44,968 bases of DNA, taken from NCBI GenBank assembly GCA_026989035.1, contig JALSKB010000179.1, positions 1 through 44,968 on the forward strand, written 5' to 3'. The notes under the pieces are model-generated. The model was not told where the DNA came from. It was given only the letters and a program-made list of their open reading frames with translations, and made no database searches. This DNA comes from Saprospiraceae bacterium (GTDB lineage: Bacteria; Bacteroidota; Bacteroidia; Chitinophagales; Saprospiraceae). Of the stretch, positions 959-42,489 are shown in pieces. The position numbers and the translations under genes are program-made. Numbering within the stretch: position 1 is the first letter of the stretch; each line of letters opens with the position of its first letter.

Positions 959-2854
959 TCACCAAAACTTCTCCAAAGCCACAGCTGCTTCTCGCATCTC
1001 GGGCTCTAACGCCAGGCAACGCAACAAAGCCCGACGCGATTCCTCTTTGCGTCCCTCTTGCAAGAACAAAGCACCCAGGTTTAGCCAGGCACGGGCGTAA
1101 TCCGGATCCAAGCGAAGCGCTTGGCGATAAAGAGACTCTGCCTTTTTGTAATCGCCTCGAAGCGCTCGCAAATAAGCCAGATTGTTGAGCGATACGGGTA
1201 GCCAGGAGTCCAGAGACAAAGCTGTTGCAAAAGCCTCCTCTGCCTGGCCATAGCGCCCCAAGGCTGTCAGAGCTACACCCCGCTTCTCGTGAAAAGGTGG
1301 ATGCGCCGGCCGCAAAACCAGAGCTTCTTCAAAAAAGTGCAATGCCCTTTCTGCTTCTCCTAGCTGCAAAAATGCCTCTCCAATGCGGTAAAAAGTATAG
1401 GCATCACCGGGCTTCTCCGGATTCCCCTCCACAAAATCCAACAAGGCCTCGTAATCCCCGCGGGCAAAGTAGTAATACACCCATTCTTTAAAAGCCAATG
1501 CTTTACTCTGTTGTAAATAAACAAAAGCCGAATCCAACATCTCCGGCCCTTGGTCGTACCGCTCGTGAAAGGCCAAATACCCCTGTGCCGTCAGCAAAGG
1601 CGTAGGCTCACCCGTCAACAATTCAAGCCCCAAAAAGGCTTTCCCTTTGGCCGGCTTTCGCCAAATGCTGTCTTTCCGAATATAGTGATCCGTAATCTGC
1701 ACATGGGGAATGTCTATGCTACCCGAACGAGGCATGTGACAGGAAATACAGTCTTTCCCTGACGCTTTGCGCTCAGCCGGACCTAAACTACAAGTTCGAT
1801 CGGAATGCTCTGCGTGGCAATTTGTACAAGCCCTGACAAAATCTCCGCGCTCCGTTTTGCGGATGCTGTGATGCGGATCATGACAAGACAAACAGCTTAG
1901 CTCTGACTTCTGATAGCAAGCACTCTGCTTCAGACGATCGGCCTGGGAAGCCATAATAAAAGCCCTGTCCGAGTCTTCGTAACGCGGCAAAAAATACCGA
2001 ATGTAATCGTGTAAACGCATGCCCGGCCGAAAATCCAAATAAGTCTTCCCTTCAGCCAACACACTCACCCCCTGTAGATGACAGCGCTGGCACAAATCCA
2101 TCAGTCGTTCACGTGTCAAACGGGATGGCCGCACAATGCTCAAGTCGGCTTCAAGCGCTGTATCGACCAGCACACCGCTCATCTTTTCTTCTACATGCAA
2201 ACTGCCCGGTCCATGACAGCGCTCACAACCAATAGGGCGCAAAGCCCTTCGATAGCGGTGGAAAGCTGCCGTATCCACCTTCGGCAAATCGCTGTGACAA
2301 CTCACACACTCCCACTCCAAACGCCGAAAAAAACGTTGATTCCCGCCATGAGCAAATCCCGGTGCCAAATCCCAACGCCCCTCTTGGGTGTAAAAGGTAA
2401 TAGGTGCCTGATACAAATAACCGTTTCGCTCGATAAGGTGAGAGTTCGTATGCTGTCCGCTACCCACTACATACCTTATCCGCGCTTCCAACAAATGAAC
2501 CGTATCACCCGCCTCAAGGCGAAACTCCCTAACGTACAAGCTGCTGTCCTTCCAAAAAGGGTGATAGTAAAAATTCTTTATGCTATCATAGACCAAAACC
2601 TCAGACCCGAAAAAAGCCGAGCTGTTCTGCGGCAAAGCTGCAGCTATGGATTGCCCCATTTCAGTCTGCACAAAGGCCTCGTAAATCTCCGCATGGCAAG
2701 GCCGACAGGCTTTCGACCCCACGTAATGCACCTCTTTCGCCCAATTTCGAAATTCCAAATCCTGCGGCTCAGGCCGGCAAGCCGACCAAAAGAAAAAAAG
2801 CAAAGAAAAAAAAACTCCTCTCCGCAATATGCCATTCCTCTCTTCTCTTGACAT
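959..2854 (-). CDS. Heptahaem c-type cytochrome lipoprotein with C-terminal TPR domain
   Basis: 631 residues. Seven CxxCH haem-attachment motifs are visible at residues 50-54, 183-187, 210-214, 255-259, 321-325, 343-347 and 369-373. The N-terminus is a lipoprotein signal (hydrophobic run then FFWSAC, lipidated Cys26), so the protein should be anchored in an envelope membrane, facing the periplasm or the outside. After about residue 470 there are four TPR units (for example AERALHFFEEALVLRP and KKAESLYRQALRLDPDYA). The haem spacing resembles cytochrome c554/NrfA-related multihaem electron carriers; no catalytic CxxCK is seen. The likely role is electron transfer with a protein-docking TPR tail, but the redox partner is unknown. 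The ATG at 2852-2854 is followed by a typical basic n-region. It is divergent from the Crp/Fnr-type gene at 2987. Confidence 0.88.
   Translation of the reverse strand: MSREERNGILRRGVFFSLLFFFWSACRPEPQDLEFRNWAKEVHYVGSKACRPCHAEIYEAFVQTEMGQSIAAALPQNSSAFFGSEVLVYDSIKNFYYHPFWKDSSLYVREFRLEAGDTVHLLEARIRYVVGSGQHTNSHLIERNGYLYQAPITFYTQEGRWDLAPGFAHGGNQRFFRRLEWECVSCHSDLPKVDTAAFHRYRRALRPIGCERCHGPGSLHVEEKMSGVLVDTALEADLSIVRPSRLTRERLMDLCQRCHLQGVSVLAEGKTYLDFRPGMRLHDYIRYFLPRYEDSDRAFIMASQADRLKQSACYQKSELSCLSCHDPHHSIRKTERGDFVRACTNCHAEHSDRTCSLGPAERKASGKDCISCHMPRSGSIDIPHVQITDHYIRKDSIWRKPAKGKAFLGLELLTGEPTPLLTAQGYLAFHERYDQGPEMLDSAFVYLQQSKALAFKEWVYYYFARGDYEALLDFVEGNPEKPGDAYTFYRIGEAFLQLGEAERALHFFEEALVLRPAHPPFHEKRGVALTALGRYGQAEEAFATALSLDSWLPVSLNNLAYLRALRGDYKKAESLYRQALRLDPDYARAWLNLGALFLQEGRKEESRRALLRCLALEPEMREAAVALEKFW
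1653..1665 (-). repeat. Iterated 13-mer TTTGGCGAAAGCC, copy 1
   Basis: Exact copy in the sense direction of the heptahaem cytochrome gene, where it is read as IWRKP (frame TGG-CGA-AAG). Confidence 0.8.
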
Positions 2855-2955
2855 CTGCTGTGCTTTTTACCTTATAAAACGCCTATGCGTAAAAAACAAA
2901 CTAAACTACAGCCTGCAAGCCGTACAAGCAAAAATAAATAACATCCTGAAAACCC

Positions 2956-2963
2956 TATCTTTG
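2956..2963 (+). promoter_or_regulatory. Possible -7 promoter element (TATCTTTG)
   Basis: Exact match to the Bacteroidota -7 consensus TAnnTTTG, 23 nt before the ATG of the Crp/Fnr-type gene. No clear TTG is seen at the usual upstream distance, so the call rests on one box. Confidence 0.4.
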
Positions 2964-2986
2964 TAGCAAACCAAAAAGCAACTGAA

Positions 2987-4567: not shown

Positions 4568-4571
4568 AGCC

Positions 4572-5519
4572 TTATTTTTTTAATCCGATTTCCCGCAAAC
4601 GCTCATCCAGATAGGCCCCGGCAGTGATAGGGGCGTATTGCAAAGGGCGATCCTCCGTTACACATTGCGGCAGGCAACTCAAGTCCATTTCGCTGCGCGG
4701 GTGCAGGAAAAAGGGTATGGACAAACGCGGCTCATGCCAACGTTCCCGCGGAGGATTCACCACCCGATGCGTCGTGGAAGGCAGGTAGTTGTTGGTCAGA
4801 CGCTGAAGCATGTCCCCTACATTGATGACAATCTCGTCTTCAGCCGGCATGGCTTCAATCCACTCTCCGGCCTGATTCAAAACTTGCAAACCTCCGGCCG
4901 AAGCCCCCACCAGCAAAGTAATCAAATTGATGTCTTCGTGCTGCTCTGCCCGAATGGCTGATGCCGGCTCCTCCGTAATCGGAGGGTAGTAAATAGAACG
5001 CAAGATGCTGTTGCCATAACGAATTTTGTCGTCAAAATAACGCTCTTCCAAGCCCAAATAACGCGCAATCGCCTGAAGCAACTTACCGCCCGTAAGTTCA
5101 AAAATGCGATACAAGGCAATGCCTGTCGGTACAAAGTCGGGCACTTCCCGAACAAAGACATTCTCCGGATATTCCTCCCCCAAAAGCTCCTCCCCTTCAA
5201 GCTCCTGACCAATCTGAAAAAACTCCTTCAAATCGGGCTTGTCAAACCCCTTAGCGTGCTCTCGGCCAAAAGAAGTATAACCGCGCTGGCCAGCCAATTC
5301 CGGCAGTTCGTACTGACTCTTTACCCCATCCTGTAAAGCAAAAAATTCGTGCGAAAGGCGGTAAAAATCATCCACCAAAGAAGTCGGAATACCGTGATTT
5401 TTGACCACCACAAAACCTATTTGCCGAAAGGCATCTCCAATCTCCTGCACAAACTCGGCACGCGCGGCTTCATCCCCGGAAGTGTACTTCCTCAAATCGA
5501 CAACGGGAATCTTTTTCAT
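4572..5519 (-). CDS. 2-oxoglutarate/Fe(II)-dependent oxygenase, isopenicillin-N-synthase family
   Basis: 315 residues from the ATG at 5517-5519 (MKKIPVVDLR); the upstream ATG at 5577 would add an atypical extension. The N-terminal non-haem dioxygenase domain (PVVDL, GFVVVKNHGI at ~35-44) is followed by the double-stranded beta-helix. The iron triad is complete: His194 and Asp196 (EQHEDIN) and His251 (STTHRVVNP). Arg265 and Ser267 (RLS) match the 2-oxoglutarate-binding RxS. The family oxidises small molecules, often in secondary metabolism or catabolism; the substrate cannot be told from sequence. It is divergent from the TMTC-like gene, whose start is 65 nt away. Confidence 0.88.
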   Translation of the reverse strand: MKKIPVVDLRKYTSGDEAARAEFVQEIGDAFRQIGFVVVKNHGIPTSLVDDFYRLSHEFFALQDGVKSQYELPELAGQRGYTSFGREHAKGFDKPDLKEFFQIGQELEGEELLGEEYPENVFVREVPDFVPTGIALYRIFELTGGKLLQAIARYLGLEERYFDDKIRYGNSILRSIYYPPITEEPASAIRAEQHEDINLITLLVGASAGGLQVLNQAGEWIEAMPAEDEIVINVGDMLQRLTNNYLPSTTHRVVNPPRERWHEPRLSIPFFLHPRSEMDLSCLPQCVTEDRPLQYAPITAGAYLDERLREIGLKK

Positions 5520-5584
5520 ATCTTTGCTTTGTCGGTTAAACCCTTTACCAGGACTGTTCGTAAAAATATGCCAAAACACAGCTC

Positions 5585-7666
5585 ATGGCTCAACGCAAAG
5601 TTAAAAAAAAGAAACCAAAAAAGCAGGCCCCACAAACAACACCTCCAAAACAAAACCTACGACTCTATGCCATCCTGCTTTTCGCCTTTTCCTTCTTGCT
5701 CTACGCCAACACTTTTAACAATGATTTCGCCTTAGATGACGCCATAGTCATCACACAAAACGAATTCACCACACAGGGCATCCAAGGCATACCCCAACTG
5801 CTCAAATACGACACCTTTCGCGGCTTTTTCAAAGAAGCAGGAAAAGACAAACTGGTATCGGGAGGGCGTTTCCGACCGGCCTCGCCCGTCTTCTTTGCAC
5901 TCATGGTCGAATTTTTCGGTCTCAAGCCCATGCCACTCCACATAGCTAATGCAATTTTTTACGCACTAACAGTTGTGCTTCTCTTCTACTTATTCTTTCT
6001 TTGGCTTTCGCCAAATAAAAACCTATCTAAAAAACAGGTTTTATACGTCAGCTTAGGCACGGCTTTGCTCTTTGGCGCACACCCTTTACACACGGAAGTC
6101 GTGGCCAACATCAAGGGCTTAGATGAAATTTTTGCCCTGCTCGGCAGTTTAGCTACAGCCTGGCTCATTACTCGGGCAGCTGATCAAAAAAAATGGACAA
6201 CCTCCTTTTGGGCTGCACCCGTCTTTTTGTTCGCTTTGCTCTCCAAAGAAAACGCCATCACCTTTTTGGGCATCATGCCCCTGGCCTTGTATTTTTTCAG
6301 GCCCGGCAACCTCTGGAAACAAAGCCTAAAGTATCTCCTGCCCGCACTTGCAGCAAGCCTGCTCTTTCTAATCTGGCGCGGCAACATCCTGGGCTGGAGC
6401 CTGGGTGAGCCCGTAAGGGAACTGCTCAACAATCCTTTCCTCAAGTGGGACGGAAAAACCTATATCCCCTACTCCTTCACTGAAAAACTGGCGACCATAG
6501 CCCATACCCTGCTCGAATACCTGCGCCTCCTCTTCTTCCCCCATCCGCTGACCCACGATTACTACCCCCACCATATCCGATTGCACACCTTCTCTTCACC
6601 CACAGCCCTGCTTGGGCTAATCGCATATCTGGCTCTCGGCCTCTATGCTCTCCGAGGTATCCTGCGAAAGCAAATGCCGGCATTTGGCGTGGCCTGGTAC
6701 CTGATGAGCCTGTCTATCGTATCCAACATCGTTTTTCCGGTAGGCGTGTTTATGTCGGAGCGATTTTTGTACATGCCCTCAGTCGGATTTGCCTTTTTCC
6801 TCTCTTGGTTTTTGTACCGCCTTACGGCAAAAAAAGGAGGGCTGCAAACCAAAAACTGGTGGTTAATCGTCGGCACAATCTCCTTGCTCTTCAGCATAAA
6901 AACCATCACCCGCAACCCCGCTTGGAAAGACGACTACACCCTCTTTACCACCGATATTCGCGTATCCAAAAACAGTGCAAAATTGCAAAACTCCGTCGGA
7001 GGAAAAATGGTGGAACGCGCTCAATCTCTAGAAGGAGAAGAACGCCTAAAGCTCATCCAAAAAGCCATCCCGCATTTTCAAAAAGCCATAGAACTACACC
7101 CGTACTTTAAAAACGCCTACCTACAAATGGGCAATGCCTTAGTCTATTTAAGCGAATATGAGAAAGCCCTACCTTACTACGACAAAGCTCTGCGCATAGA
7201 CCCATCTTTTGTAGAAGCCATCACCAACAAAGGAGTAGCCCTGGCCAGCTTGCATCGCTATGATGAAGCCATACAGCAATACGAACAAGCCCTCAAAGTC
7301 AAACCTCAATATCAAGACGCCCGCCAAAGAAAACTCAATACCCTGCGCGAAGCCGGGCGTTACTACGGCCAACAAAACAATTTGGCGAAAGCCCTGGAAT
7401 ACCTCCACAAAGCAGAAAAAGAAAATCCTAAAGACTACCAAACACTACACCTACTTGGTGTGGCTTACGGCTTTGCCAACCAAACCGAACGAGCCATATC
7501 TTATTTTGAAAAAGCACTGAAATACGCGCCTCAAGACAAAGCTGCGCCCATATATTTCGATCTGGGTAGCGCGTATTACAACGCAAAACAAAACGAAAAA
7601 GGAGCAAAGTTTCACCAAAAAGCTATCCAGCTCGACCCCTCCATGCAAAAACGCTTGCAGCAATAA
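5585..7666 (+). CDS. TMTC-like membrane glycosyltransferase (GT-C type) with C-terminal TPRs
   Basis: 693 residues. A very basic N-terminus (KVKKKKPKKQ) is followed by about ten hydrophobic helices to residue ~440. The first extracytoplasmic loop carries paired aspartates (FALDDAIVI, D51-D52), the position of the catalytic acidic residue in GT-C enzymes. A later loop reads FGAHPLHTEVVANIKGLDEI, close to the HP-HTE-V motif of eukaryotic TMTC protein O-mannosyltransferases. From ~residue 465 there are about six TPRs (AIQQYEQALKVKP, ALEYLHKAEKENP and others). By family it should transfer a sugar from a lipid carrier to protein outside the cytoplasmic membrane; acceptor and sugar are unknown. The ATG at 5585 lies close to the divergent oxygenase. 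Confidence 0.75.
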   Translation: MAQRKVKKKKPKKQAPQTTPPKQNLRLYAILLFAFSFLLYANTFNNDFALDDAIVITQNEFTTQGIQGIPQLLKYDTFRGFFKEAGKDKLVSGGRFRPASPVFFALMVEFFGLKPMPLHIANAIFYALTVVLLFYLFFLWLSPNKNLSKKQVLYVSLGTALLFGAHPLHTEVVANIKGLDEIFALLGSLATAWLITRAADQKKWTTSFWAAPVFLFALLSKENAITFLGIMPLALYFFRPGNLWKQSLKYLLPALAASLLFLIWRGNILGWSLGEPVRELLNNPFLKWDGKTYIPYSFTEKLATIAHTLLEYLRLLFFPHPLTHDYYPHHIRLHTFSSPTALLGLIAYLALGLYALRGILRKQMPAFGVAWYLMSLSIVSNIVFPVGVFMSERFLYMPSVGFAFFLSWFLYRLTAKKGGLQTKNWWLIVGTISLLFSIKTITRNPAWKDDYTLFTTDIRVSKNSAKLQNSVGGKMVERAQSLEGEERLKLIQKAIPHFQKAIELHPYFKNAYLQMGNALVYLSEYEKALPYYDKALRIDPSFVEAITNKGVALASLHRYDEAIQQYEQALKVKPQYQDARQRKLNTLREAGRYYGQQNNLAKALEYLHKAEKENPKDYQTLHLLGVAYGFANQTERAISYFEKALKYAPQDKAAPIYFDLGSAYYNAKQNEKGAKFHQKAIQLDPSMQKRLQQ
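6000..6015 (-). repeat. Iterated 13-mer, copy 2 (full 16-nt hairpin)
   Basis: TTTGGCTTTCGCCAAA, a perfect 6-bp stem with a TTTC loop, antisense within the TMTC-like gene, where it encodes LWLSPN. Confidence 0.8.
7381..7393 (+). repeat. Iterated 13-mer, copy 3
   Basis: Exact and sense within a TPR of the TMTC-like gene, read as NLAKAL. Confidence 0.8.
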
Positions 7667-7732: not shown

Positions 7733-10660
7733 ATGAATACAAAAAAAGTCACCTTAAGTCTTTTGTTCATTGCTCTGGGCAAATTTCTCTTCGCTCAAAC
7801 AGCGCCCTTCTGGGCCGACGACCCACAAGCCGATGCTTGGGTGGATTCGGTTTATCAAAGCCTGAGTGAAGATGAGCGCCTCGGGCAGCTCTTCATGATA
7901 CGCGCCCACTCCAACCTCGGCCCCGAACACCAACGACAAGTGGAAAAGCTCATCAGAGAAGAACACGTAGGAGGATTGCTCTTCTTTCAAGGCTCGCCCG
8001 AACAACAAGCTCTGCTCACCAACCACTATCAGGAAATCTCCGGCAAAGTCCCCCTCATGATTGCCATGGATGCCGAATGGGGCCTGGGCATGCGGCTAAA
8101 AGAAAACGCCATCAGCTTCCCCAAGCAACTCACCCTCGGCAGCATAGAAGAACGCGAACTCATTTACGAAATGGGCGCCGAAATCGGCCGTCAACTGCGT
8201 CGGCTGGGCGTACATATCAACTTTGCCCCCGTAGCCGATATCAACAACAACCCCGACAATCCCGTCATCAACGTGCGCTCTTTCGGAGAAGACCGCTACG
8301 AAGTCAGTACCCGCAGCTACCTGTATGCCCGCGGACTGCAAGATCAACGGGTGCTGGCTTGCGCCAAACACTTCCCCGGCCATGGAGATACCGATGTGGA
8401 CTCCCACCTCGATTTGCCCCTCATTCCCCACAAGCGTCAACGCTTAGACAGCGTCGAACTCTTTCCCTTTCATCAACTCGCGCAAAGAGACCTGGGTAGC
8501 ATCATGATTGCCCATCTGCATGTTCCCGCTCTGGACGACACACCTCACCTGCCAACAACCCTCTCTTCTCAAGCCGTTAACAATATTTTGCGAAAGCAAT
8601 GGCAATACCAAGGCCTCATCGTTACCGACGGCCTGGGCATGAAAGGCGTAACCAAATACTTCCCCAGTGGAGAACTGGAGGCCATGGCTCTGGCCGCAGG
8701 TAATGACTTGTTGCTGCTGCCTCAAGATGTGCCCGCCGCCAAGGCCGCCATCCGCCGCTATCTGGCCGAAGGCAAACTCAGCCCTAAACGCATAAAAGAA
8801 AGCGTACGCCGCATCCTCCGCCTCAAATACTGGCTGGGACTGGCTCACTACCGGCCCATTCCCCTGGCAAACCTTCGGGCAGACCTCAACAACCCCAAAG
8901 CCCAAGCGCTCAAACGCCAACTCTATCAACACGCACTCACTTGGATAAGTGACGAAAACCACCTGCTCCCTTTTCGAGAAACAGCTCATCTCCAATTTGC
9001 CAGCCTCAGCATTGGAACAGACGTCCGAACGCCCTTTCAAAAGCGCCTCAACAGCTATGTGCCTGCCCAGTATTTTGTACTACCTACCAACATCTCGGAC
9101 GGCCGCGCCAAACGCTACTTGCGCCTGCTGAAAAAATACGACCGAATCATCGTTGGCCTGCATGGACTCAACCCCTATGCTGCTCGCAACTTTGGCCTGA
9201 AACCCTCTACCATTCGCTTTTTGCAAAAACTCCGAGAGCAAAATGAAATCATCTTGGTCGTCTTCGGAACACCTTACGTCCTGGCTCAACTGGAAGACTT
9301 CCCTCATATTCTGCTCGCCCATGAAGATGATCCATCGGCCCAGGATGTGGCAGCACAAGCGCTCTTTGGAGCCTTCAGGGTAGCGGGAAAGCTACCCGTT
9401 AGCGTGGGCCTGAGATTCAAAGCCGGACATGGGCTGGAACGTCCTTCCCTGTGGCGCCTGGCTTATGGGCTCCCCGAAGAAGAAGGCATGAACTCCTTGA
9501 TTCTCCGTGGCATCGACACTTTGGCTCAACACGCCATAGACAGCGGAGCTACACCAGGCTGTGTCGTGCTCGTAGCACGCAATGGAAGAGTCGTTTTTCA
9601 CAAGGCTTATGGCTACCACACTTATCGAAAAAAACACCCCATGAGCCCCGACGACATCTTCGACCTGGCCTCCGTTACCAAAGTGGCTGCTACCACCCTC
9701 TCCATCATGAAGCTGTATGAAGAAGAAAAATTGCGCCTTAGCGACACCCTGGCCTGCTATTTACCGGAAACAGATACTACCGACAAAGCTTGCTTGGTCG
9801 TAGAAGACATCTTGCGCCACCGAGCCGGCCTCAAACCCTGGATTCCCTTCTACGAAGAAACGGTCTCCGAAAAAAAACACCGCCCCCTGCCTACCTATTA
9901 TCGCAGCCGTAAAAGCTCCAACTACGATATCAGCGTTACGGACAAACTCTACCTGCTCGATAGCTATCCGGATTCCATTTGGCAAAAGATTCTCCAATCT
10001 CCTCTGCGCGACAAACCCGGCTACCTGTACAGCGATTTGGGGCTCTACCTCATGGCCGAAACCATTCACCGACTCACAGGTATGCCCTTAAATGAATACG
10101 CCGACAGCGTCTTTTACCGCCCTCTGGGTTTGCAAACTACGGGCTTCAACCCCCTTCAAAGATTCTCCCGATCCCGCATTCCGCCAACTGAAGAAGACGA
10201 TTATTTCCGACACCAACGCATTCAGGGATACGTCCATGACATGGGAGCCGCCATGCTGGACGGAGTAAGCGGCCATGCCGGCCTGTTCTCCAATGCTAAT
10301 GACCTGGCCATCCTCTTTCAAATGTTGCTCAACGGAGGCTATTACGGAGGTAAGCGCTACCTCAAAGCAGAAACCATAGACCGCTTTACCTCCCGTTGTG
10401 AAAACTGCAGTCGCAGAGGCATAGGCTTCGATATGAAACAACTCGACCCCACCCAGGTACTCAACGTATCCGAATATGCCTCGGAACGCGCCTTCGGCCA
10501 CCTGGGATTTACCGGCATCAGCGTCTGGGCCGACCCTGCCGAAGGCCTGATCTTTGTCTTCCTGTCTAATCGCACTTACCCCAAAATGACCAACCACAAA
10601 CTAGCTTCCATGAACTTCCGGCCCCGCATACAATCCATAGCCTATAAAGCCATCCAATAA
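7733..10660 (+). CDS. Glycoside hydrolase family 3 / serine beta-lactamase-like hydrolase fusion
   Basis: 975 residues with a Sec signal peptide ending near LFAQTAP. Residues ~40-370 are a GH3 (NagZ-like) barrel: KHFPGHGDT at 212-220 carries the GH3 acid/base His motif and VTDGLGMKGV carries the nucleophile Asp299. A middle domain (~380-580) follows. Residues ~590-970 are a class C beta-lactamase/esterase-like domain with SxxK (S647-V-T-K650), Y766-S-D in place of the usual YxN, and a late HLG motif (FGHLGFTG). By family knowledge the N-domain removes beta-N-acetylhexosamine from muropeptides; the second domain is probably a D-amino-acid peptidase or esterase. It is therefore likely a periplasmic peptidoglycan-processing enzyme, consistent with the penicillin-binding protein gene downstream. 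A 105-bp element starts 7 nt after its stop. Confidence 0.9.
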   Translation: MNTKKVTLSLLFIALGKFLFAQTAPFWADDPQADAWVDSVYQSLSEDERLGQLFMIRAHSNLGPEHQRQVEKLIREEHVGGLLFFQGSPEQQALLTNHYQEISGKVPLMIAMDAEWGLGMRLKENAISFPKQLTLGSIEERELIYEMGAEIGRQLRRLGVHINFAPVADINNNPDNPVINVRSFGEDRYEVSTRSYLYARGLQDQRVLACAKHFPGHGDTDVDSHLDLPLIPHKRQRLDSVELFPFHQLAQRDLGSIMIAHLHVPALDDTPHLPTTLSSQAVNNILRKQWQYQGLIVTDGLGMKGVTKYFPSGELEAMALAAGNDLLLLPQDVPAAKAAIRRYLAEGKLSPKRIKESVRRILRLKYWLGLAHYRPIPLANLRADLNNPKAQALKRQLYQHALTWISDENHLLPFRETAHLQFASLSIGTDVRTPFQKRLNSYVPAQYFVLPTNISDGRAKRYLRLLKKYDRIIVGLHGLNPYAARNFGLKPSTIRFLQKLREQNEIILVVFGTPYVLAQLEDFPHILLAHEDDPSAQDVAAQALFGAFRVAGKLPVSVGLRFKAGHGLERPSLWRLAYGLPEEEGMNSLILRGIDTLAQHAIDSGATPGCVVLVARNGRVVFHKAYGYHTYRKKHPMSPDDIFDLASVTKVAATTLSIMKLYEEEKLRLSDTLACYLPETDTTDKACLVVEDILRHRAGLKPWIPFYEETVSEKKHRPLPTYYRSRKSSNYDISVTDKLYLLDSYPDSIWQKILQSPLRDKPGYLYSDLGLYLMAETIHRLTGMPLNEYADSVFYRPLGLQTTGFNPLQRFSRSRIPPTEEDDYFRHQRIQGYVHDMGAAMLDGVSGHAGLFSNANDLAILFQMLLNGGYYGGKRYLKAETIDRFTSRCENCSRRGIGFDMKQLDPTQVLNVSEYASERAFGHLGFTGISVWADPAEGLIFVFLSNRTYPKMTNHKLASMNFRPRIQSIAYKAIQ

Positions 10661-13492: not shown

Positions 13493-14542
13493 TCAATGCA
13501 CACAACGAGCCAAACCCTCTTTAGCAGCTTGATATTCCGGATCCAAACGAAGGGCCTGTTCGTAATCGGCTTTGGCTTTCGCCAAATTTCCTTGCAACTC
13601 CCAGGCTACCCCCCTGTAGTAATAAGCTTTGACAAAAGCCGGATCGGTTTTTATGGCTAAGTCAAACTGCTCCGATGCCTGAGCCGTGGAATCCATGTCT
13701 AGGTATAACAAACCCGAATTGTAGTAAGCATCACTGTACTGAGGATCCAAATCAATGATTTGGCGATAGACCTTCAAGGCCTCGTCCAACCTGTTTAAAT
13801 TATTTGAAAGATGATAGGCCTTTTCATGAAGGGCCAAAATATTCTCGGGATCGGCCCGCAAAGCATTGTCGTAATAACGCAAGGCTTCCTCAGGGTCGGC
13901 CTCTTTCCACAAAGCGGCCAACTGCAACCAGCCGTCAACCAATTTCGAATCCAAATTGACCGCCTTGAAATAAGCCTTCTTGGCTTTTTCTCTCTCCCCC
14001 TGATCTAAATAAATAGTCCCCAACATAAAATAAGCCTCTGCATTTTGAGGGTCTATCTTTAAAACCTTACCCACCGTCTTCAAAGCCTCCTCGTGCTGCT
14101 TCAAAATCAACTGAAACTCCGAAAGCTTCAGCAAAGTGGGTATGCGCTCGGGATAAAGTGAAGCAGCATACAGCATGGTATTTAGGGCCTTTTGAGACTG
14201 GTAATAATCCATATAAATATCGGCTAAAAGATGCAGGTAATCGACATTGACAGAATCCAAAGCCAAGGCCCTGTTCAAATCTTCTATAGCCGGATCATAG
14301 GCCTCCTGCTCATAATAATAACGAGCCCTGGCTGCATAAGCCTCGGCATTCCCCGACTCCTCTGCTATGAGCTGATTCAACTTCTCCAAAGCGGGATCAG
14401 AACTTTGTGTCTCAACTCTTTGCTTTTTCTCCTCTCCGGAAGCAGACTCCTCCTCACAAGACAGCATGAACAGCAGCATCAAAAAAACGACAAAGGGCAA
14501 AGACAAAAAGCGACCCAATACCATCAACCTAAAACACTTCAT
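13493..14542 (-). CDS. TPR-repeat lipoprotein
   Basis: 349 residues. The signal sequence ends in LLFMLSC, giving lipidated Cys29, followed by a Ser/Glu-rich linker (~30-50) that suits an envelope-anchored protein. From ~55 to the end there are about eight consecutive TPRs (for example AIEDLNRALALDS, KAKKAYFKAVNLDS, KAKADYEQALRLDPEYQ). No enzymatic domain. The likely role is scaffolding of an envelope complex; partner unknown. Its stop converges on the penicillin-binding protein gene, 15 nt beyond the tandem duplication. Confidence 0.85.
   Translation of the reverse strand: MKCFRLMVLGRFLSLPFVVFLMLLFMLSCEEESASGEEKKQRVETQSSDPALEKLNQLIAEESGNAEAYAARARYYYEQEAYDPAIEDLNRALALDSVNVDYLHLLADIYMDYYQSQKALNTMLYAASLYPERIPTLLKLSEFQLILKQHEEALKTVGKVLKIDPQNAEAYFMLGTIYLDQGEREKAKKAYFKAVNLDSKLVDGWLQLAALWKEADPEEALRYYDNALRADPENILALHEKAYHLSNNLNRLDEALKVYRQIIDLDPQYSDAYYNSGLLYLDMDSTAQASEQFDLAIKTDPAFVKAYYYRGVAWELQGNLAKAKADYEQALRLDPEYQAAKEGLARCVH
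13571..13586 (-). repeat. Iterated 13-mer, copy 4 (full 16-nt hairpin)
   Basis: TTTGGCTTTCGCCAAA on the plus strand. In the TPR lipoprotein gene it reads TTTGGCGAAAGCCAAA and encodes NLAKAKA. Confidence 0.8.
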
Positions 14543-26401: not shown

Positions 26402-26417
26402 TTTGGCGAAAGCCAAA
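26402..26417 (+). repeat. Iterated 13-mer, copy 6 (intergenic, full hairpin)
   Basis: TTTGGCGAAAGCCAAA between sucB and slyD, the only intergenic full copy. On the minus strand it forms a short stem followed by CTTTTTTTC and then the slyD ATG, so it resembles a weak terminator placed in the slyD leader. Confidence 0.8.
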
Positions 26418-26482: not shown

Positions 26483-27748
26483 CTATAAATCCAGCAACAG
26501 TTTAACAGGATCTTCCAGCAGTTCTTTCACGCGAACGAGAAAAGTTACCGAAGTGCTTCCGTCAATAATGCGATGATCGTAAGAAAGAGCCAGGTACATC
26601 ATCGGGCGAATCTCTACCTGACCGTTTACAGCTACAGGGCGCTCTTTGATGGCATGCATACCCAAGATGGCACTCTGCGGCTCGTTCAAAATGGGCGTAC
26701 TCAACAAGGAGCCAAAAACACCTCCATTCGTGATGGTAAAAGTGCCGCCACTCATCTCTTCCAAACTCAACCTCCCTTCTCTGGCTTTGGCAGCCAACTC
26801 CTTAATCTTGCGTTCAATCTCTGCGAAAGACAGCGATTCCACATTTTTTACGGGAGGCACCACCAAGCCGTTGGGTGTAGAAATAGCGATGGAAATATCC
26901 ACGTAATCGTGATAAATGATTTCATCGCCCTCGATAAAGGCATTGACATCGGGCATATCCATCAGCACTTTGGCGCAAGCCTTGGCAAAAAGCGACATAA
27001 AGCCCAGTTTGATGCCGTATTTTTCTACAAATTGTTCTTGATATTTCTTCCGCAAAGCCATGACTTCCGTCAAATCCACCTCGTTAAAGGTGGTCAGCAT
27101 GGCTGTTTGATTTTTTGCTGAAACGAGACGACGGGCAATAGTCCGCCGCATGCGACTCATCTTTTTGCGCTGTTCTGTTCGTTTTGGGCTTTCGCCAAAT
27201 GTCGGAGCTTCTTGCCGGTCAGCCTCGGCCTGTACCGCCTTATCTGCCGTCGTTGTTGCAACCCGCTTTTCATCAGCTATAGCCCCTAACACGTCTTGCT
27301 TAGTAATGCGACCGCCCTTGCCCGTGCCTTGAATTTGTGAAGCTTCCAAACCGTTTTCCCGAAGAAGCTTGGCTGCAGCCGGAGAAGGAACACCGACCTC
27401 TTTTGCCGAAGTTTGAAGCTCAGTGGCTGCTTCCGATTTGCCGGAAGGCAATTGAACCTGCTTCTGCTCGCCCTCTTCCGCAGCAACGGTGGGTTTCTCT
27501 GCCGGAGCAGCATCAGTATCTATACGAGCCACCAAGGCTCCTATTTCCAAATCATCCCCTTCCTTAGCTACGTGAATCAACTTACCTGCAGCTTCCGCAG
27601 GAAATTCCAAGGTAGCCTTGTCCGATTCAAACTCGCAAATGGGTTCATCGCGTTCGACATAAGAGCCGTCTTCCTTCAACCACTGCGACAGGGTTACCTC
27701 GTTGATGGACTCTCCTATGGTTGGGACGCGCATTTCTCTAATAGGCAT
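26483..27748 (-). CDS. sucB: 2-oxoglutarate dehydrogenase E2, dihydrolipoamide succinyltransferase
   Basis: 421 residues from the ATG at 27746-27748 ([15 protein letters not shown]). The lipoyl domain has its modified lysine in [10 protein letters not shown]. An Ala/Glu-rich linker is followed by the E3-binding domain ([15 protein letters not shown] ... [11 protein letters not shown]), a second linker, and the acyltransferase core ending with the catalytic [10 protein letters not shown]. The VPTIGESI start and [13 protein letters not shown] point to the succinyl rather than acetyl enzyme. It is part of the TCA-cycle complex; sucA is not adjacent in this window. Confidence 0.93.
27187..27199 (-). 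repeat. Iterated 13-mer, copy 7
   Basis: Exact and sense in the second linker of sucB, where it encodes TFGESP. Confidence 0.8.
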
Positions 27749-30720: not shown

Positions 30721-30808
30721 AATTAAATACTTTGCTTGTGTGTAGCTAAATGAAAGAGTAAAGCACTGTACAACTGCTACAATTGCTTTGCGCAAAAGCC
30801 GGCCGAAA

Positions 30809-30883
30809 AAACCGCCGGTTTCCTGCTTGAGAGCGCCACCGGATATAGAACGCTCAGCTGAAGTTTCTATTATCCGGTGGCAC
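30809..30883 (-). other. Tandem hairpins between gldM and gldN
   Basis: GCCACCGGATA (30835-30845) pairs with TATCCGGTGGC (30871-30881), extended by TAGAA/TTCTA after a bulge. Next on the minus strand comes AAACC-GGC-GGTTT followed by T residues (around 30823-30809), which resembles a weak terminator. Together they could reduce transcription into gldN or define an mRNA end. Confidence 0.6.
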
Positions 30884-30947
30884 TTCCCTGTTTTTTATGA
30901 GCAAGACAGACTTCAAAGGTTATCAAACCTCTGCAAGCCGCCTGTTC

Positions 30948-34879: not shown

Positions 34880-35869
34880 TCAAAAACGGGGGCTATAAAT
34901 AACAGGAGGCAATTTGCCCTTGCCCGGCACTTTGCCCAAAGCATACTGTATCCACAATTCATGAGAGCCGTCGGAAACCCTCCTCAAACCGGAAACTGTC
35001 CAGTCGTAAGCATACATCAAACGCCACTTTTCATTGAGTTGATACCCCAGGGAAAAAATCAAAGCATCCAAGCTGCGGCTGTCGTATCCTCTTAACGCCA
35101 GGCCTGCCGAAATATTGCCGTTCCAGGTCCAAAGGGAAGATAGATCCGTTTGCCAGCTCACCAGATCGGTTTTTACCAGCAAAGCGGGTTCCCACAGCAA
35201 GAAGCGCCCCCACTCCATTCTATAAGCTCCGTAAAAGAAAAGATGAACCGTCGGATCGTGTACCACCGGGTTCTGTTTGGCGAAAGCCGACAAAGCAAAA
35301 CGCTCTATGGAAAGACCTAAAGCCCCTCGTTCAGATAACCAAAAAGCTCCAAGCCCGGCCGTAAGCCAGGCCGCTTGCCAAGGCTGTGCCTGGAGCCTGT
35401 CATCCCGATGGTCTATGGTTCCTCCCTCGTAAACCCCATCCGGCGTACGCAAAAACTGACCTGGCAGACGCTGCTGCTCATAACCCAAGCGAGCACCCAA
35501 AGACCACTTGCCTCCCGCTAAAATGCCTTGGAAGTTGTAAGCTAAACCGGCTGTTAACCACTCTTCTGCGCCCAAGACCTCCCTGCTCAACTGCAAGCCC
35601 ACGCCTCCTCTGGTCAGATATACAGGCATCTGTAGCGAAACAAAACCCGATTGTGGCTTGCCGGGCAATGGCCCCAACCATTGACTGCGCCAACGGGCAT
35701 CCAACAACAAATCTTCTTCCAAGCCGGCATAAGCAGCATTGAACAAAAGGGGGTTGAGCGAAAACAGGCTGTACTGAGGCAACTGCTGGGCCGGCAAAAC
35801 AGCTGCAAAAACCAACAACAAACCTGTAAGCCACGCCCAACGAAAAAAAGTGAAGTCAAACTGCTTCAT
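34880..35869 (-). CDS. PorP/SprF-family type IX secretion outer-membrane protein
   Basis: 329 residues. The signal peptide ends near VLPAQQ, directly followed by the family signature LPQYSLFSLNPLLFNAAYAG. The remainder is a 14-strand-type barrel, with GKPQSGFVSLQMPV and later AGLALRGYDSRSLDALIFSLGY, ending SPRF. In this family, members associate with a T9SS substrate or with the GldKN ring. Its position upstream of gldK on the same strand matches the common porP-gldKLMN order. It carries one iterated 13-mer (35276). Confidence 0.92.
   Translation of the reverse strand: MKQFDFTFFRWAWLTGLLLVFAAVLPAQQLPQYSLFSLNPLLFNAAYAGLEEDLLLDARWRSQWLGPLPGKPQSGFVSLQMPVYLTRGGVGLQLSREVLGAEEWLTAGLAYNFQGILAGGKWSLGARLGYEQQRLPGQFLRTPDGVYEGGTIDHRDDRLQAQPWQAAWLTAGLGAFWLSERGALGLSIERFALSAFAKQNPVVHDPTVHLFFYGAYRMEWGRFLLWEPALLVKTDLVSWQTDLSSLWTWNGNISAGLALRGYDSRSLDALIFSLGYQLNEKWRLMYAYDWTVSGLRRVSDGSHELWIQYALGKVPGKGKLPPVIYSPRF
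35276..35288 (+). repeat. Iterated 13-mer, copy 8
   Basis: Exact, antisense within the PorP/SprF gene, which reads it as AFAKQ. Confidence 0.8.
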
Positions 35870-37113: not shown

Positions 37114-39048
37114 ATGGGCAGTCAAAAAGTTTCTCTGGTTACCGACGTGACCACCAGACAGCAATGCATGGAGTATTTGCTCAAAGATTTGCGTGCCCTG
37201 GAGCTGATGATGGAGCAAGATCTTTTTGACCGCGGCACTCGCCGCATGGGCGCCGAGCAGGAATTCTGCTTTGTAGATGAGCATTGGCGGCCGGCACCGG
37301 TGCTGATGAAGGTCTTGGAACAAATAGATGATCCCCATTTCACTACCGAGTTGGCGGTTTTCAACATGGAGGTCAATTTGGATCCTCAAGAGCTTAAAGG
37401 GAGCTGCCTCAGCGAATTAGAGCAACAACTGCAAACGTATTTGGCGAAAGCCGATGCCATCTCCTCCAAGAAAAAAGCGCATCCTATCTTAGTGGGCATC
37501 CTGCCCTCCATCAGACGCTCTGACATTGGCCTGCAAAACCTCACCCCTTTGGAGCGTTATGCAGCTTTAATGGATGTGCTACGTCAAATACGAGGAAGTC
37601 ATTTCGAGTTTTGGATTGAAGGCACCGATCAGCTCATCACCAAAGCCGAAAGCTCCATGTTTGAAAGTTGTAACACCAGTTTTCAACTGCACTTTCAAGT
37701 CTGGCCCGAGGAATTTGCCGAGGCCTACAATTGGTCTCAGTTGGTTACGGGCCCTCTCTTGGCTGCAGCTACCAACTCGCCCATGCTTTTGGGAAAGCGC
37801 CTGTGGCGCGAAACGCGCATAGCGCTATTCCAGCAGGCTGTGGATACCCGCAACACGGCAGAGCTTTCCCGCCAACGCAGCCAACGGGTCTCGTTTGGCA
37901 ACCGGTGGGTGCGCCGATCGGTCCTGGAGCTCTATCGCGAAGAAGTGAGCATGCACAAACTGTTGCTGCGGCCCAAAAAAATGGAAGACGCCTTAAAAAC
38001 TTTAGAGAAAGGGCGCATCCCGCCGCTGTATTCCCTCAGCATACACAGCGGCACCATCTACCGCTGGAACAGAGCCTGCTATGGCATCAGCGAAAACGGA
38101 AAACCGCACCTGCGTATAGAAAACCGCGTCTTGCCGGCCGGCCCCTCTACCCTTGATGAGGTGGCCAATGCCGCCTTCTGGCTGGGCCTTATGCTCAACA
38201 GACCACCCGAATACGAACGCCTGTGGGAACGCCTCGATTTCGATCTCGCCAAAGGCAATTTCCTGCGGGCAGCTCGCCAAGGCCTGGGCGTGTATTTCTC
38301 CTGGCCGGGTTTGAGTAAAAAAATCGCCGCCCCCGAACTCATCCTCAAAGAGCTGCTGCCCATTGCCCGCGAAGGCCTCAACCAAGCCGGCATAAATCGA
38401 GAAGAGGTAGAACACTACCTCGGCATCCTGGAAGCCCGGGTCAAATCGGGCCGAACCGGCTCGCAGTGGATTCTGGATTCCTTCAACAGCTTAAAAAAAC
38501 AAAGCAGCCCCGAAGAAGCCATCGTAGCCACCACCGCCGCCCTGTGGAAGCGCCAGCAAACGGCAAAACCCGTTCACGAATGGGAAACGGCCAAGCTCAC
38601 CGAAGCCGGCAATTGGATGAATCGCTTCGGGTGCATACAACAAATCATGAGTACAGACCTGCTCACCGTCAATGAGCACGACCTCATCGATTTTCTGGCT
38701 CATTTAATGACCTGGCGCAACATCCGCCACCTGCCGGTAGAAAACGAGGCCGGTGAACTGGTGGGTCTGATCACCTCCAAACAACTGGTCGAACACTACA
38801 GCCAAAACTGCAACCGCCCGAACATCCGCTCAGCCAAAGACATCATGATTCGAAAATTTATTGCCGTAAATCCCGAAACGCCGACCGCCGAAGCTGTTGC
38901 CCTGATGCGGCAACACCACATCAGTTGCCTGCCCGTTATCCGTGAAAAAAAACTGCTCGGCATCGTTACCGAATCGGACTTCGTCAACATGGCAGCTCAA
39001 GTACTCCAAGAAGTATCCGACAAAAACTACCGAGAATCATCCGAGTAA
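37114..39048 (+). CDS. Glutamate-cysteine-ligase-family (GCS2) enzyme fused to a CBS pair
   Basis: 644 residues. Residues ~30-400 are a GCS2-type carboxylate-amine ligase: RRMGAEQEFCFVDE supplies the metal-binding glutamates, FNMEVNLDPQ, FWIEGTDQLI, and a C-terminal HLRIENRVLPAGP. The last ~140 residues are two CBS motifs (IMSTDLLTVNEHDLIDFLAH and IMIRKFIAVNPETPTAEAVA), which in other proteins bind adenine nucleotides. By family it may join glutamate to an amine or thiol (gamma-glutamyl compound) under adenylate control; the substrate is unknown. The gene stands before an O-methyltransferase 35 nt away. Confidence 0.85.
   Translation: MGSQKVSLVTDVTTRQQCMEYLLKDLRALELMMEQDLFDRGTRRMGAEQEFCFVDEHWRPAPVLMKVLEQIDDPHFTTELAVFNMEVNLDPQELKGSCLSELEQQLQTYLAKADAISSKKKAHPILVGILPSIRRSDIGLQNLTPLERYAALMDVLRQIRGSHFEFWIEGTDQLITKAESSMFESCNTSFQLHFQVWPEEFAEAYNWSQLVTGPLLAAATNSPMLLGKRLWRETRIALFQQAVDTRNTAELSRQRSQRVSFGNRWVRRSVLELYREEVSMHKLLLRPKKMEDALKTLEKGRIPPLYSLSIHSGTIYRWNRACYGISENGKPHLRIENRVLPAGPSTLDEVANAAFWLGLMLNRPPEYERLWERLDFDLAKGNFLRAARQGLGVYFSWPGLSKKIAAPELILKELLPIAREGLNQAGINREEVEHYLGILEARVKSGRTGSQWILDSFNSLKKQSSPEEAIVATTAALWKRQQTAKPVHEWETAKLTEAGNWMNRFGCIQQIMSTDLLTVNEHDLIDFLAHLMTWRNIRHLPVENEAGELVGLITSKQLVEHYSQNCNRPNIRSAKDIMIRKFIAVNPETPTAEAVALMRQHHISCLPVIREKKLLGIVTESDFVNMAAQVLQEVSDKNYRESSE
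37440..37452 (+). repeat. Iterated 13-mer, copy 9
   Basis: Exact and sense in the GCS2-CBS gene, encoding YLAKAD. Confidence 0.8.
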
Positions 39049-39728: not shown

Positions 39729-39733
39729 CGCCA

Positions 39734-40666
39734 GTGCCTAACCCTCGGCTCTACTCTCGAAAAGAACTAAATACCAAGCAATGGGACACTGTTGTTGGCA
39801 AAGCTCGCAATGGCCTGCCATATGCGTATAGCTGGTATTTGGACATAGTAACTCAAAAACGGTGGAAAGCACTGATCAGTACCGATGGCTCTGCCCTCAT
39901 GCCCGTTCCTCTGGCACCTCTTCGTTTTAGCTTTCGCCAAATAATAAAACGCGGCACTGCCTGGCATACCTGGGTCTTGCAACCCCTCTTTTGCCAGCAA
40001 TTGGGCTTATTTGCCGAAAGGCCTCTACAAAAAGACGAGACAACGGTCTTCCTCAAAGAGCTTTTTCGAAATTTCCCAAAAATTGCTGTTTACTGCCTCA
40101 ACGAGAACATGTCTCTACCCGAAAAAAAACTGGCCGGCTCTTACAAAATGCGAACCAATTACTTGCTAGATTTAAATCGGGCCTACAAAGAAATACGCGG
40201 AGGGTATTCCGCCTCACATCGCAGAGCACTAAAAAAGTCAAAAGAGGCATGGCAGTATGAAGAGAGCTCGGCTTTTTCAAAAACCTTTTTCCAAAGCCAT
40301 GCTCGATACCTGGGAAAAAAAACGGGCTTAAACCAACGAGCTTACCGACGCTGGGCCACATTGGTGCAAACTGTCACCCATAAAAAACAAGGCTTTTTTG
40401 TGCGCGTAAAAAATCACAAAAAAACATTGTGTGCCGAAGCTTTTATCTTACAGAGCCACAACCGCCTCATTTACCAGGGAGGATATGTACTACCCGAAGC
40501 ACAAGCACGGATGCCCATGCATGCCTTATTCGACGGATTGATTCAACGCCATGCAGGACAAAAGCTGTTACTGGATTTCGAAGGTTCTGATTTACCCGGT
40601 GTAGCAGAATTCTTTCGCAGATTTGGGGCCCAAAAAAGGTCGTATGGCTGTCTTTGGAGAGGGTAA
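39734..40666 (+). CDS. FemAB/GNAT-like acyltransferase
   Basis: 310 residues from the GTG at 39734, 5 nt after the O-methyltransferase stop. The C-terminal half has a GNAT-like core as in the FemAB group: GFFVRVKNHKKTLCAEAFIL, then RLIYQGGYVLPEAQARMPMH and LLLDFEGSDLPGVAEFFRRFG. The N-terminal half (YAYSWYLDIVTQKRWKALIS) resembles the first GNAT-like lobe. The substrate is unknown; FemAB relatives attach amino acids to peptidoglycan or acyl groups elsewhere. It converges with the Omp85 gene (stop to stop, 8 nt). Confidence 0.7.
   Translation: MPNPRLYSRKELNTKQWDTVVGKARNGLPYAYSWYLDIVTQKRWKALISTDGSALMPVPLAPLRFSFRQIIKRGTAWHTWVLQPLFCQQLGLFAERPLQKDETTVFLKELFRNFPKIAVYCLNENMSLPEKKLAGSYKMRTNYLLDLNRAYKEIRGGYSASHRRALKKSKEAWQYEESSAFSKTFFQSHARYLGKKTGLNQRAYRRWATLVQTVTHKKQGFFVRVKNHKKTLCAEAFILQSHNRLIYQGGYVLPEAQARMPMHALFDGLIQRHAGQKLLLDFEGSDLPGVAEFFRRFGAQKRSYGCLWRG
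39930..39941 (-). repeat. Iterated 13-mer, copy 10 (one mismatch)
   Basis: GCTTTCGCCAAA preceded by A instead of G, antisense in the FemAB-like gene, which reads it as SFRQI. Confidence 0.65.
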
Positions 40667-40674
40667 TCCCCCAC

Positions 40675-42489
40675 TTAAAACCTCCCGACATACCCCAGAT
40701 GGATCTTGGGACTTCTCCAGTCGGGTTGCTGGCCTTGCCGGGCACCAAAAGCCAGGTTAACAGCTAATTGACCGGCAGGCGTGGCAAAGGTGAGACCAGC
40801 ACCTATACCCAAAGGGTGCTCCGTAAAATAAGCCGCCACGCTGTTCTCCTCTAACCAGCCGTAGTCGACAAACAGATAAAAACGGGAATCCGGACCGGTA
40901 ATCCACCGATACTCGGCCGTCCAAATCAAATAAGAAGAAGCAAGCAAAGAACGTTCGTCAAAACCTCGCAAGCTGTAGTACCCGCCCAATTGAAAAAGCT
41001 CATTTTGATATAACGCTGTTTTCGAATAAAAATGACCGGCTTTGAGACTCAAGCCCAAACTGCTGCTTTGGAAAAGGGGCAGATAGAAACCGACATCCAG
41101 CCGAATCCGGGCCTGAGCAACCTGAGTCGGAATGCTATCGTACAAAGACGCAAAATCAAACTCGGGCTCTTCAGCATCGGTCAAACCGGCAATAAGCGGA
41201 TTAACAGGAGTTCTCTTTCGAGAAAAAGAAAAGTCGGTTTTCAAACGCCAACCTCTTCGCGGATTAAAAGGCATGTCCAATTTTCCCAGCTGCATTTCTA
41301 TACCTAAACCCCTTCGCTCTACATCCAGCCTTGAGGGCAATTGGTGGGTTTGCTTTATTTGGGAAGTATCTGTTGTGATAATAGTGGAAGAACTGCCCTG
41401 CCAATACATACTGACAAACTGTGTGGCCCGCAAAGGATAGCTAAGACCAATTCTCCAGAGCAAGTCACTAAAAGATGTGTCTTGTTTAAATTGCTCAAAA
41501 CGGGCGTTCCCTCCCAAAGGCAAAGGGCCGATAAAGGGATACCACAATTTGACTGAAAGTTTTTTGGTGCCGGAAGGGAGCTGTTCGTATTGAGCCTGAA
41601 AGCGCTCTCCTTGCCGGAAAGCATTAAAAAAATCTGCTCTCAACTGACCCGTAAAAGAAAAACGAGGAGCCCCCGGATTGGAGCCGGCATTGAGGCCAAA
41701 AATAAAATCAAAACTGCTGGCCTTGCGCTTTTTGAGCTGAAGAATGGGTGTAGCCACATCTGCTGAAAAAAGCCATTGAGGAGGTGCTGCCACTTGGAGA
41801 TAAGGCAAAGCTTGAAGTGTTTGCAACAATTCATCTACTTCTTTTTGTCGATAAACTTTGCCTTCCGGCAAATGGAGTAACCTGCCGAGCATGTCAGGAG
41901 AAATTCCGGCATCACCCCGTATATCCGGTTTGCCGTAACGAATGAGAGGGCCGCTTTCAAAAACCAGTGTAGCCCGGCTTTGCCCGTCCGGTTCAAAGCT
42001 CAGACTATCCAGGCGAATGCTGGCCAAAGGATAGCCTTGTTCGGCAGCCTGGCGCAAAATTCGCCTTTGAAATGTTTTGATTTCCTCATAGGAAAGAGGC
42101 TTGTGGCTCACTTTTTTTTGGCGAAAGCCCGATTTTGAAAGCAGTTGATCGCTGAGCCCGGCCGTTCTAAGCTGCACCCAACGAAAACGCGGCCCGACGA
42201 ACAAACTCGCCCTGCAAAGGCTGTCTTCACAGTCAAAGCTAAGCAGGCGTGCAGCCAAATACCCTGCAGCCAACAAACTATCCAAGCAAGACGCCACTGC
42301 TCGCCTTGCTTCTTCCAAACTGCGATAATGCTCAGAAAAAACCTTTCGACAAATGCCGGTATCTCCCTGGATGTACTCCCATTGAAAGCTCACCGCCTGT
42401 TCTGGCTCCTGAGCCTGAAGGGCATAAATGGGCAACAATAACAAAAGCCGAAATAAAAATGACCGGAAGTATGGTCTGACAGCCCTCAT
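40675..42489 (-). CDS. Omp85/BamA-TamA-family outer-membrane protein
   Basis: 604 residues from the ATG at 42487-42489 (MRAVRPYFRSFLFRLL, signal ending YALQAQ); an earlier ATG at 42529 would add 14 residues. Residues ~80-260 contain POTRA-like alpha/beta units (KVYRQKEVDELLQTLQALP). The C-terminal ~350 residues form a 16-strand-type barrel with MPFNPRRGWRLKTDFSFSR and the late GYYSLRGFDE (an RGF/Y-type insertion motif), ending GYVGRF. It is likely an outer-membrane insertase or translocation pore; shorter and probably distinct from the housekeeping BamA. Confidence 0.88.
   Translation of the reverse strand: MRAVRPYFRSFLFRLLLLLPIYALQAQEPEQAVSFQWEYIQGDTGICRKVFSEHYRSLEEARRAVASCLDSLLAAGYLAARLLSFDCEDSLCRASLFVGPRFRWVQLRTAGLSDQLLSKSGFRQKKVSHKPLSYEEIKTFQRRILRQAAEQGYPLASIRLDSLSFEPDGQSRATLVFESGPLIRYGKPDIRGDAGISPDMLGRLLHLPEGKVYRQKEVDELLQTLQALPYLQVAAPPQWLFSADVATPILQLKKRKASSFDFIFGLNAGSNPGAPRFSFTGQLRADFFNAFRQGERFQAQYEQLPSGTKKLSVKLWYPFIGPLPLGGNARFEQFKQDTSFSDLLWRIGLSYPLRATQFVSMYWQGSSSTIITTDTSQIKQTHQLPSRLDVERRGLGIEMQLGKLDMPFNPRRGWRLKTDFSFSRKRTPVNPLIAGLTDAEEPEFDFASLYDSIPTQVAQARIRLDVGFYLPLFQSSSLGLSLKAGHFYSKTALYQNELFQLGGYYSLRGFDERSLLASSYLIWTAEYRWITGPDSRFYLFVDYGWLEENSVAAYFTEHPLGIGAGLTFATPAGQLAVNLAFGARQGQQPDWRSPKIHLGYVGRF
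42117..42129 (+). repeat. Iterated 13-mer, copy 11
   Basis: Exact, antisense in the Omp85 gene, which reads it as GFRQK. Confidence 0.8.

What the first reader, a model, noticed from the sequence alone, without database searches (positions are those of the whole stretch)
1653..42129. Iterated 13-mer TTTGGCGAAAGCC used in all six reading frames
Ten exact copies and one with a single mismatch occur at 1653, 6000, 7381, 13571, 17789, 26402, 27187, 35276, 37440, 39930 (mismatch) and 42117. By chance about 0.001 exact copies would be expected in 45 kb of random sequence on both strands. Inside genes the word is read as LAKA, FGES, WRKP, AFAK, GFRQ/SFRQ and WLSPN, which covers all three frames on both strands, and one copy is intergenic. 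Protein selection or codon bias therefore cannot explain it. Three copies extend to a perfect TTTGGC-GAAA-GCCAAA type hairpin with a tetraloop. The spacing is a few kb. Candidate roles are an iterated word like cyanobacterial HIP1, a DNA-uptake sequence, a Chi-like or methylation site, or a nucleoid/replication signal.
Basis: partly seen in the sequence, partly recalled or inferred. Interest (0 to 1): 0.85.

Follow-up and report, generated by a model that had tools for sequence, protein, structure and literature searches.

The report
Genome-wide DNA mini-hairpin word in Saprospiraceae
About 1,500 copies of a tiny DNA hairpin (a three-base-pair stem with a fixed four-base loop and fixed neighbouring letters) are scattered through the genes and gaps of this uncultured Saprospiraceae bacterium, and related genera use spelling variants of it, which suggests a signal that is recognised by its folded shape and not only by its letters.

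Summary
TTTGGCGAAAGCC occurs 10 times in the window and 429 times in the 3.12-Mb genome (reversed control 0). A sister word, TTTGCCGAAAGGC, is equally common; the two differ by a compensatory swap in a 3-bp stem. Of 150 such copies in 364 kb, 72 pair G-C, 78 pair C-G, none is mispaired. The element is CATT[T]-GSC-GNAA-GSC-ARAAAA, a DNA mini-hairpin, about 1,500 per genome (one per 2 kb). Copies follow coding density, lie equally sense and antisense, are exponentially spaced and show no replication-strand bias. In congeners at ~72-74% flank identity the word is intact at 9/16 and 6/10 aligned sites (7% expected). Gains in genes are substitutions, not insertions. Many Saprospiraceae genera carry it, with 5' dialects (TTT, TTC, TTG, ATT); density varies tenfold within genera. 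Other Bacteroidia lack it. RNA element, protein motif, REP/RAYT repeat and HIP1 are disfavoured; the classical pilus-based uptake sequence lacks its machinery. Best reading: a DNA signal read as a folded hairpin in single-stranded or supercoiled DNA, kept by selection or biased conversion, probably a self mark in uptake or recombination. The reader protein is unknown.

The parts
1653..1665 (-). word TTTGGCGAAAGCC, sense in ORF 959-2854
5420..5432 (+). sister word TTTGCCGAAAGGC, antisense in ORF 4572-5579; conserved in G001
6003..6015 (-). word TTTGGCGAAAGCC, antisense in ORF 5585-7666; conserved in G001
6819..6831 (-). sister word with GTAA loop, TTTGCCGTAAGGC; GAAA loop in G001
7381..7393 (+). 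word TTTGGCGAAAGCC, sense; G001 differs by ungapped substitutions
8356..8368 (-). word with GCAA loop TTTGGCGCAAGCC; conserved in G001 and G002
8586..8598 (+). compensated stem variant TTTTGCGAAAGCA
13574..13586 (-). word TTTGGCGAAAGCC; absent from G001/G002 by ungapped substitutions
17055..17067 (-). word with GCAA loop; GTAA loop in G001 and G002 (loop changes, stem kept)
17789..17801 (+). word TTTGGCGAAAGCC; conserved in G001 and G002
17980..17992 (-). sister word TTTGCCGGAAGGC; gained/lost by substitution
23047..23059 (+). compensated stem variant TTTGTCGAAAGAC
24080..24092 (-). compensated stem variant TTTGACGAAAGTC
24331..24343 (+). sister word TTTGCCGGAAGGC; gained/lost by substitution
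26402..26414 (+). word TTTGGCGAAAGCC, probably intergenic; gapped alignment to congeners
26969..26981 (+). word with GCAA loop TTTGGCGCAAGCC; gained/lost by substitution
27062..27074 (-). compensated stem variant TTTGACGGAAGTC
27187..27199 (-). word TTTGGCGAAAGCC; conserved in G001 and G002
27437..27449 (+). sister word TTTGCCGGAAGGC
35276..35288 (+). word TTTGGCGAAAGCC; conserved in G001 and G002
37440..37452 (+). word TTTGGCGAAAGCC; conserved in G001 and G002 although flanks diverge
39929..39941 (-). TTTGGCGAAAGCT, outer stem pair G-T wobble
40010..40022 (+). sister word TTTGCCGAAAGGC, sense
41860..41872 (-). sister word TTTGCCGGAAGGC, sense
42117..42129 (+). word TTTGGCGAAAGCC, antisense in ORF 40675-42531

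Best explanation
The element is a DNA-level signal made of a mini-hairpin: a 5' CATT[T/C/G] single-strand flank, a 3-bp stem (G, S, C), a GNAA loop, and a 3' A-rich flank. Shown: over-representation, strict Watson-Crick covariation, fixed loop and flanks, independence of orientation and of coding, conservation beyond background, origin by substitution, dialects, restriction to one family. Inferred: a protein recognises the folded hairpin, either in single-stranded DNA or as a cruciform extruded from supercoiled DNA, as is known for C-G..A-G minihairpins. Copies are kept and created because DNA that carries them is favoured when DNA is exchanged or repaired. The most likely role is a self mark read on single-stranded DNA during uptake and/or homologous recombination, working like a DNA-uptake sequence or Chi but defined by structure.
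For: Covariation: TTTG?CGAAAG?C gives G..C 72, C..G 78, A..T 3, T..A 1, wobble G..T 1, mismatched 0; compensated double mutants (14 in 56 words) outnumber single mutants at the five inner stem positions (8 in 120). The loop is GNAA with GNGA nearly absent, which fits DNA GNNA minihairpins better than RNA GNRA (minihairpin rule in PMC4686876). DNA folding gives -3.6 kcal/mol, falling to -1.8 with one broken pair. Flanks are the same in two dialects. Coding share equals the coding fraction and spacing is exponential. Sense/antisense is 137/134 over three genomes. No strand bias. Conservation 9/16 and 6/10 against 7%. Dialects and family spread.
Against: No reader protein has been identified. ComEC is present in all 24 genomes tested, word-rich or not, so it does not discriminate. 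A convincing type II/IV pilus ATPase is seen in only one word-rich genome. Chi-like polarity is absent. The AddB-like nuclease association is weak. No experimental data.
Confidence: 0.45

Rival explanations
1. Chi-like site: the hairpin, exposed as single strand by an AddAB/RecBCD-type helicase-nuclease, changes its activity and stimulates recombination.
For: Chi is read on single-stranded DNA (established knowledge). In a hand-picked set, a ~900-946 aa PD-(D/E)XK protein that resembles AddB in size and domain layout is found in 11 of 12 word-rich genomes against 5 of 12 word-poor ones (G000 copy).
Against: Words are equally frequent on both replication strands, unlike E. coli Chi. The 925-aa protein matches no AddB model and no solved structure. 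Three of the word-poor genomes that have the AddB-like protein (G096, G051, G066) show no obvious alternative word in 55-140 kb. The association is confounded by phylogeny.
Confidence: 0.2
2. Classical DNA-uptake sequence read as duplex DNA by a type IV pilin receptor, as in Neisseriaceae or Pasteurellaceae.
For: Copy number, orientation independence, dialects between genera and an A-rich flank resemble DUS/USS; overlapping dyad pairs occur in the TTC dialect, as reported for DUS in S. muelleri (PMC3630211).
Against: Strict stem covariation is not expected for duplex recognition. A convincing PilB/GspE-type ATPase is found in only one of 12 word-rich genomes.
Confidence: 0.15
3. HIP1-like by-product: words accumulate through methylation-linked or structure-linked repair bias and have no function of their own.
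For: HIP1 has similar density and patchy replacement by alternates, and such a repair ratchet has been proposed for it (PMC4390886). Words arise by substitution.
Against: The word is not a reverse palindrome, and a fixed 5' TTT, fixed loop and A-rich flank need specific recognition. Methyltransferases were not examined.
Confidence: 0.12
4. RNA element (hairpin in mRNA, GNRA tetraloop).
For: 3-bp stem with tetraloop; slight sense excess in G000 (98/75).
Against: Sense/antisense is 137/134 over three genomes; GNGA loops are nearly absent.
Confidence: 0.03
5. Mobile mini-element or REP-type repeat spread by a Y1 (RAYT) transposase.
For: A hairpin with a conserved 5' trinucleotide recalls REP anatomy.
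Against: 91% of copies are inside ORFs. Gains and losses in genes are ungapped substitutions. Y1_Tnp is absent from three word-rich, 99-100% complete genomes.
Confidence: 0.02

Closest known systems
DNA uptake sequence dialects of Neisseriaceae (DUS) and Pasteurellaceae USS
   Same: About 1,000-3,600 copies per genome, both orientations, inside and outside genes, dialects between genera.
   Different: DUS/USS are described as sequences; here stem pairing, not the letters, is conserved. No pilus ATPase in most word-rich genomes; no uptake data.
HIP1 (GCGATCGC) of cyanobacteria
   Same: Highly iterated word with patchy replacement by alternates and a density of the order of 1 per 1-2 kb.
   Different: HIP1 is a dsDNA reverse palindrome tied to methyltransferases; this word is asymmetric and hairpin-defined, in Bacteroidota.
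Extraordinarily stable DNA minihairpins d(GCGAAAGC)/d(GCGAAGC)
   Same: The core GCGAAAGC is literally inside the GGC form; GNNA loop closed by C-G.
   Different: Those were studied in vitro; no genome-wide use as an iterated signal was found in the papers searched.
Bacteriophage N4 early promoters (hairpins extruded by supercoiling)
   Same: Short hairpin whose closing C:G pair and loop 5'G/3'A are needed for extrusion at physiological supercoiling.
   Different: A few phage promoters read by the virion RNA polymerase; here ~1,500 chromosomal copies, shorter stem, 4-base loop.
Chi sites (RecBCD/AddAB)
   Same: Frequent short words acting on single-stranded DNA.
   Different: No strand polarity here, longer, structured; enzyme link only a weak lead.

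Membership tests
DNA uptake sequence (DUS/USS) | Hundreds to thousands of copies far above expectation, both orientations | tested here: met
   429 of one form, 1,524 of TTTGSCGNAAGSC in G000 against 4 in the control
DNA uptake sequence (DUS/USS) | Dialects between related genera | tested here: met
   TTT, TTC, TTG and ATT forms
DNA uptake sequence (DUS/USS) | Type IV pilus/pseudopilus uptake machinery | tested here: not met
   PF00437: one convincing hit (G121) among 24 genomes; G000, G149, G046 and G265 have only weak partial ATPase matches
DNA uptake sequence (DUS/USS) | Word increases uptake or transformation | not testable with these tools
   needs a cultured word-rich strain
HIP1 | Reverse-palindromic octamer GCGATCGC or alternate palindrome | tested here: not met
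   the word is asymmetric
HIP1 | Cognate DNA methyltransferase | not tested
   methyltransferases were not searched
Chi | Over-represented and biased to one replication strand | tested here: not met
   119/103, 39/40 and 23/17 on G-rich/C-rich strand in three genomes
Chi | Regulates a RecBCD/AddAB-type enzyme | tested here: inconclusive
   AddB-like protein in 11/12 against 5/12 genomes, no family-level identification
REP/RAYT | Extragenic, spread by insertion, Y1 transposase present | tested here: not met
DNA minihairpin of GNNA type | GNNA loop closed by at least two G-C pairs | tested here: met
   GGC/GCC stems with GNAA loops in 192 copies of 364 kb; rule from PMC4686876

The most novel reading that the evidence does not exclude
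Saprospiraceae mark their own DNA with a structure-coded word: a protein recognises folded single-stranded DNA minihairpins, and genera keep separate dialects of the hairpin's 5' flank that act as barriers to DNA exchange, without type IV pili.
Probability: 0.35. Interest if true: 0.95.

Novelty: new variant of a known kind. Interest (0 to 1): 0.82.

Why it matters
Known iterated genomic words (DUS, USS, HIP1, Chi) are described as sequences. This one is conserved as a base-paired shape, with compensatory stem changes, in about 1,500 copies inside and outside genes. It would be the first such case that I know of, and it gives a clean test (swap or break stem pairs) for whether a bacterium recognises its own DNA by structure. 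It also predicts an unknown hairpin-reading protein in a common, mostly uncultured family.

Tried and rejected
RAYT/REP: Y1_Tnp search. Pilus uptake: PF00437 search. ComEC: universal, uninformative. Chi polarity: GC-skew test negative. AddB-like association: suggestive but small, hand-picked and phylogenetically confounded; three AddB-like-positive word-poor genomes show no substitute word. Viral carriage: 63 IMG/VR stretches have the 15-mer, all once, which I judge to be near the chance level; only one carries a second word. Literature: the exact word is in no held paper; a search for Saprospira repeats or hairpins gave nothing relevant. RNA reading rejected by orientation symmetry. The call numbered 13 (query too long) and 66 (bad search term) gave nothing.
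Full report
Observation. The 13-mer is in the window at the stated places, with small coordinate errors for some copies, and is far beyond chance: 72 copies in 364 kb of the genome against 0.06-0.13 expected under Markov models of order 1-5, and 220 + 209 copies in the 3.12-Mb draft genome with 0 for the reversed control. Congeners G001 and G002 have 424 and 350. All six frames are used.

What the unit is. The two differ at exactly two positions, which pair with each other in a 3-bp stem. In the table of stem position 2 against its partner, the mispaired combinations of G and C are 0, and rare A-T, T-A and G-T pairs occur. Counting variants of the whole word, compensated stem double mutants (14 over 56 possible words) exceed single mutants at the five inner stem positions (8 over 120). 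The outermost 3' base tolerates 15 changes, some of them to a G-T wobble. The loop is GNAA: GAAA 78%, GGAA 10%, GCAA 9%, GTAA 3%; GNGA is nearly absent. The 5' TTT is invariant and usually preceded by CA; the 3' flank is A-rich over six bases. Both flank features recur in the TTC dialect of another genus. The element is therefore CATT[T]-GSC-GNAA-GSC-ARAAAA.

DNA, not RNA or protein. Copies inside ORFs (91%) match the coding fraction (91%). Sense against antisense is 98/75, 25/40 and 14/19 in three genomes, together 137/134. Spacing is exponential (KS p = 0.59) with even density between contigs (0.45-0.64 per kb). Orientation does not follow GC skew. In window genes aligned to congeners at about 72-74% flank identity, 9 of 16 and 6 of 10 words are intact against 7% for random 13-mers. 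Differences in genes are substitutions without gaps, so these are not insertions; the few gapped cases are in diverged or intergenic stretches. GNNA loops on G-C stems form unusually stable, nuclease-resistant DNA minihairpins (PMC4686876). A closing C:G pair and loop G...A are what N4 early promoter hairpins need to extrude at physiological supercoiling (PMC4496689). The predicted DNA fold is -3.6 kcal/mol, against -1.8 for a mispaired version.

Distribution. Named relatives place the genome in Saprospiraceae. Over 248 genomes of the family, TTTGSCGNAAGSC ranges from chance to 1,631, with wide differences inside genera (G175 1,072, G083 93; G149 1,631, G046 498). G104 mixes TTT and TTG, and G088 has ATT directly before the stem. 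In the 292 genomes of the class sample outside Saprospiraceae, no genome exceeds 4 copies of the 15-mer form, against 534 in G000.

Mechanism. Shown: a covarying, conserved, orientation-independent DNA hairpin word with dialects. Inferred: a protein that reads the fold. ComEC is universal and does not help. Pilus ATPases are missing from most word-rich genomes, which argues against the classical DUS pathway. Y1 transposases are missing from three word-rich genomes. An AddB-like nuclease is found in 11/12 word-rich and 5/12 word-poor genomes, but this is weak: the sample was hand-picked, the domain model is only moderately sensitive (51.6 bits for the G000 protein), the protein matches no AddB model, and strand polarity is absent. 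I rank a single-strand self mark in uptake or recombination first, Chi-like second, duplex DUS third and a repair by-product fourth.

Limits. The word-rich genomes examined by name are metagenome assemblies; the word recurs in assemblies from independent projects, so an assembly artefact is unlikely. Functional claims are inference.

Noticed in passing
window 29842-32510 and 34880-35869: Type IX secretion/gliding genes gldN, gldM and a PorP/SprF-like protein lie in the window.
   Followed up: partly
window 7733-10660: A single 975-aa ORF fuses a glycosyl hydrolase family 3 N-terminal domain to a beta-lactamase-fold domain.
   Followed up: no
window and L003-L022 (G000): Another repeated string, CATGGCGAAGTGGTTTGGGAGGC and neighbours, recurs about 7-13 times in 364 kb; it looks like a longer separate repeat.
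   Followed up: no
L166-L177 (G265): A second hairpin word, ATTCGCGGAAGCG (stem CGC, loop GNAA), occurs 12 times in 240 kb; overlapping dyad pairs of the main word, GCCTTTCGGCGAAAGCC type, are also common.
   Followed up: no
L310-L313 (G161): TTTGGGCTCGAGCC, a palindrome after TTT, occurs 6 times in 37 kb and may be another genus-specific iterated word.
   Followed up: no
L146-L165 (G005): TTTTGCGAAGCAA-type strings with a GAA triloop hairpin and several other short iterated palindromes occur in this relative with few words.
   Followed up: no
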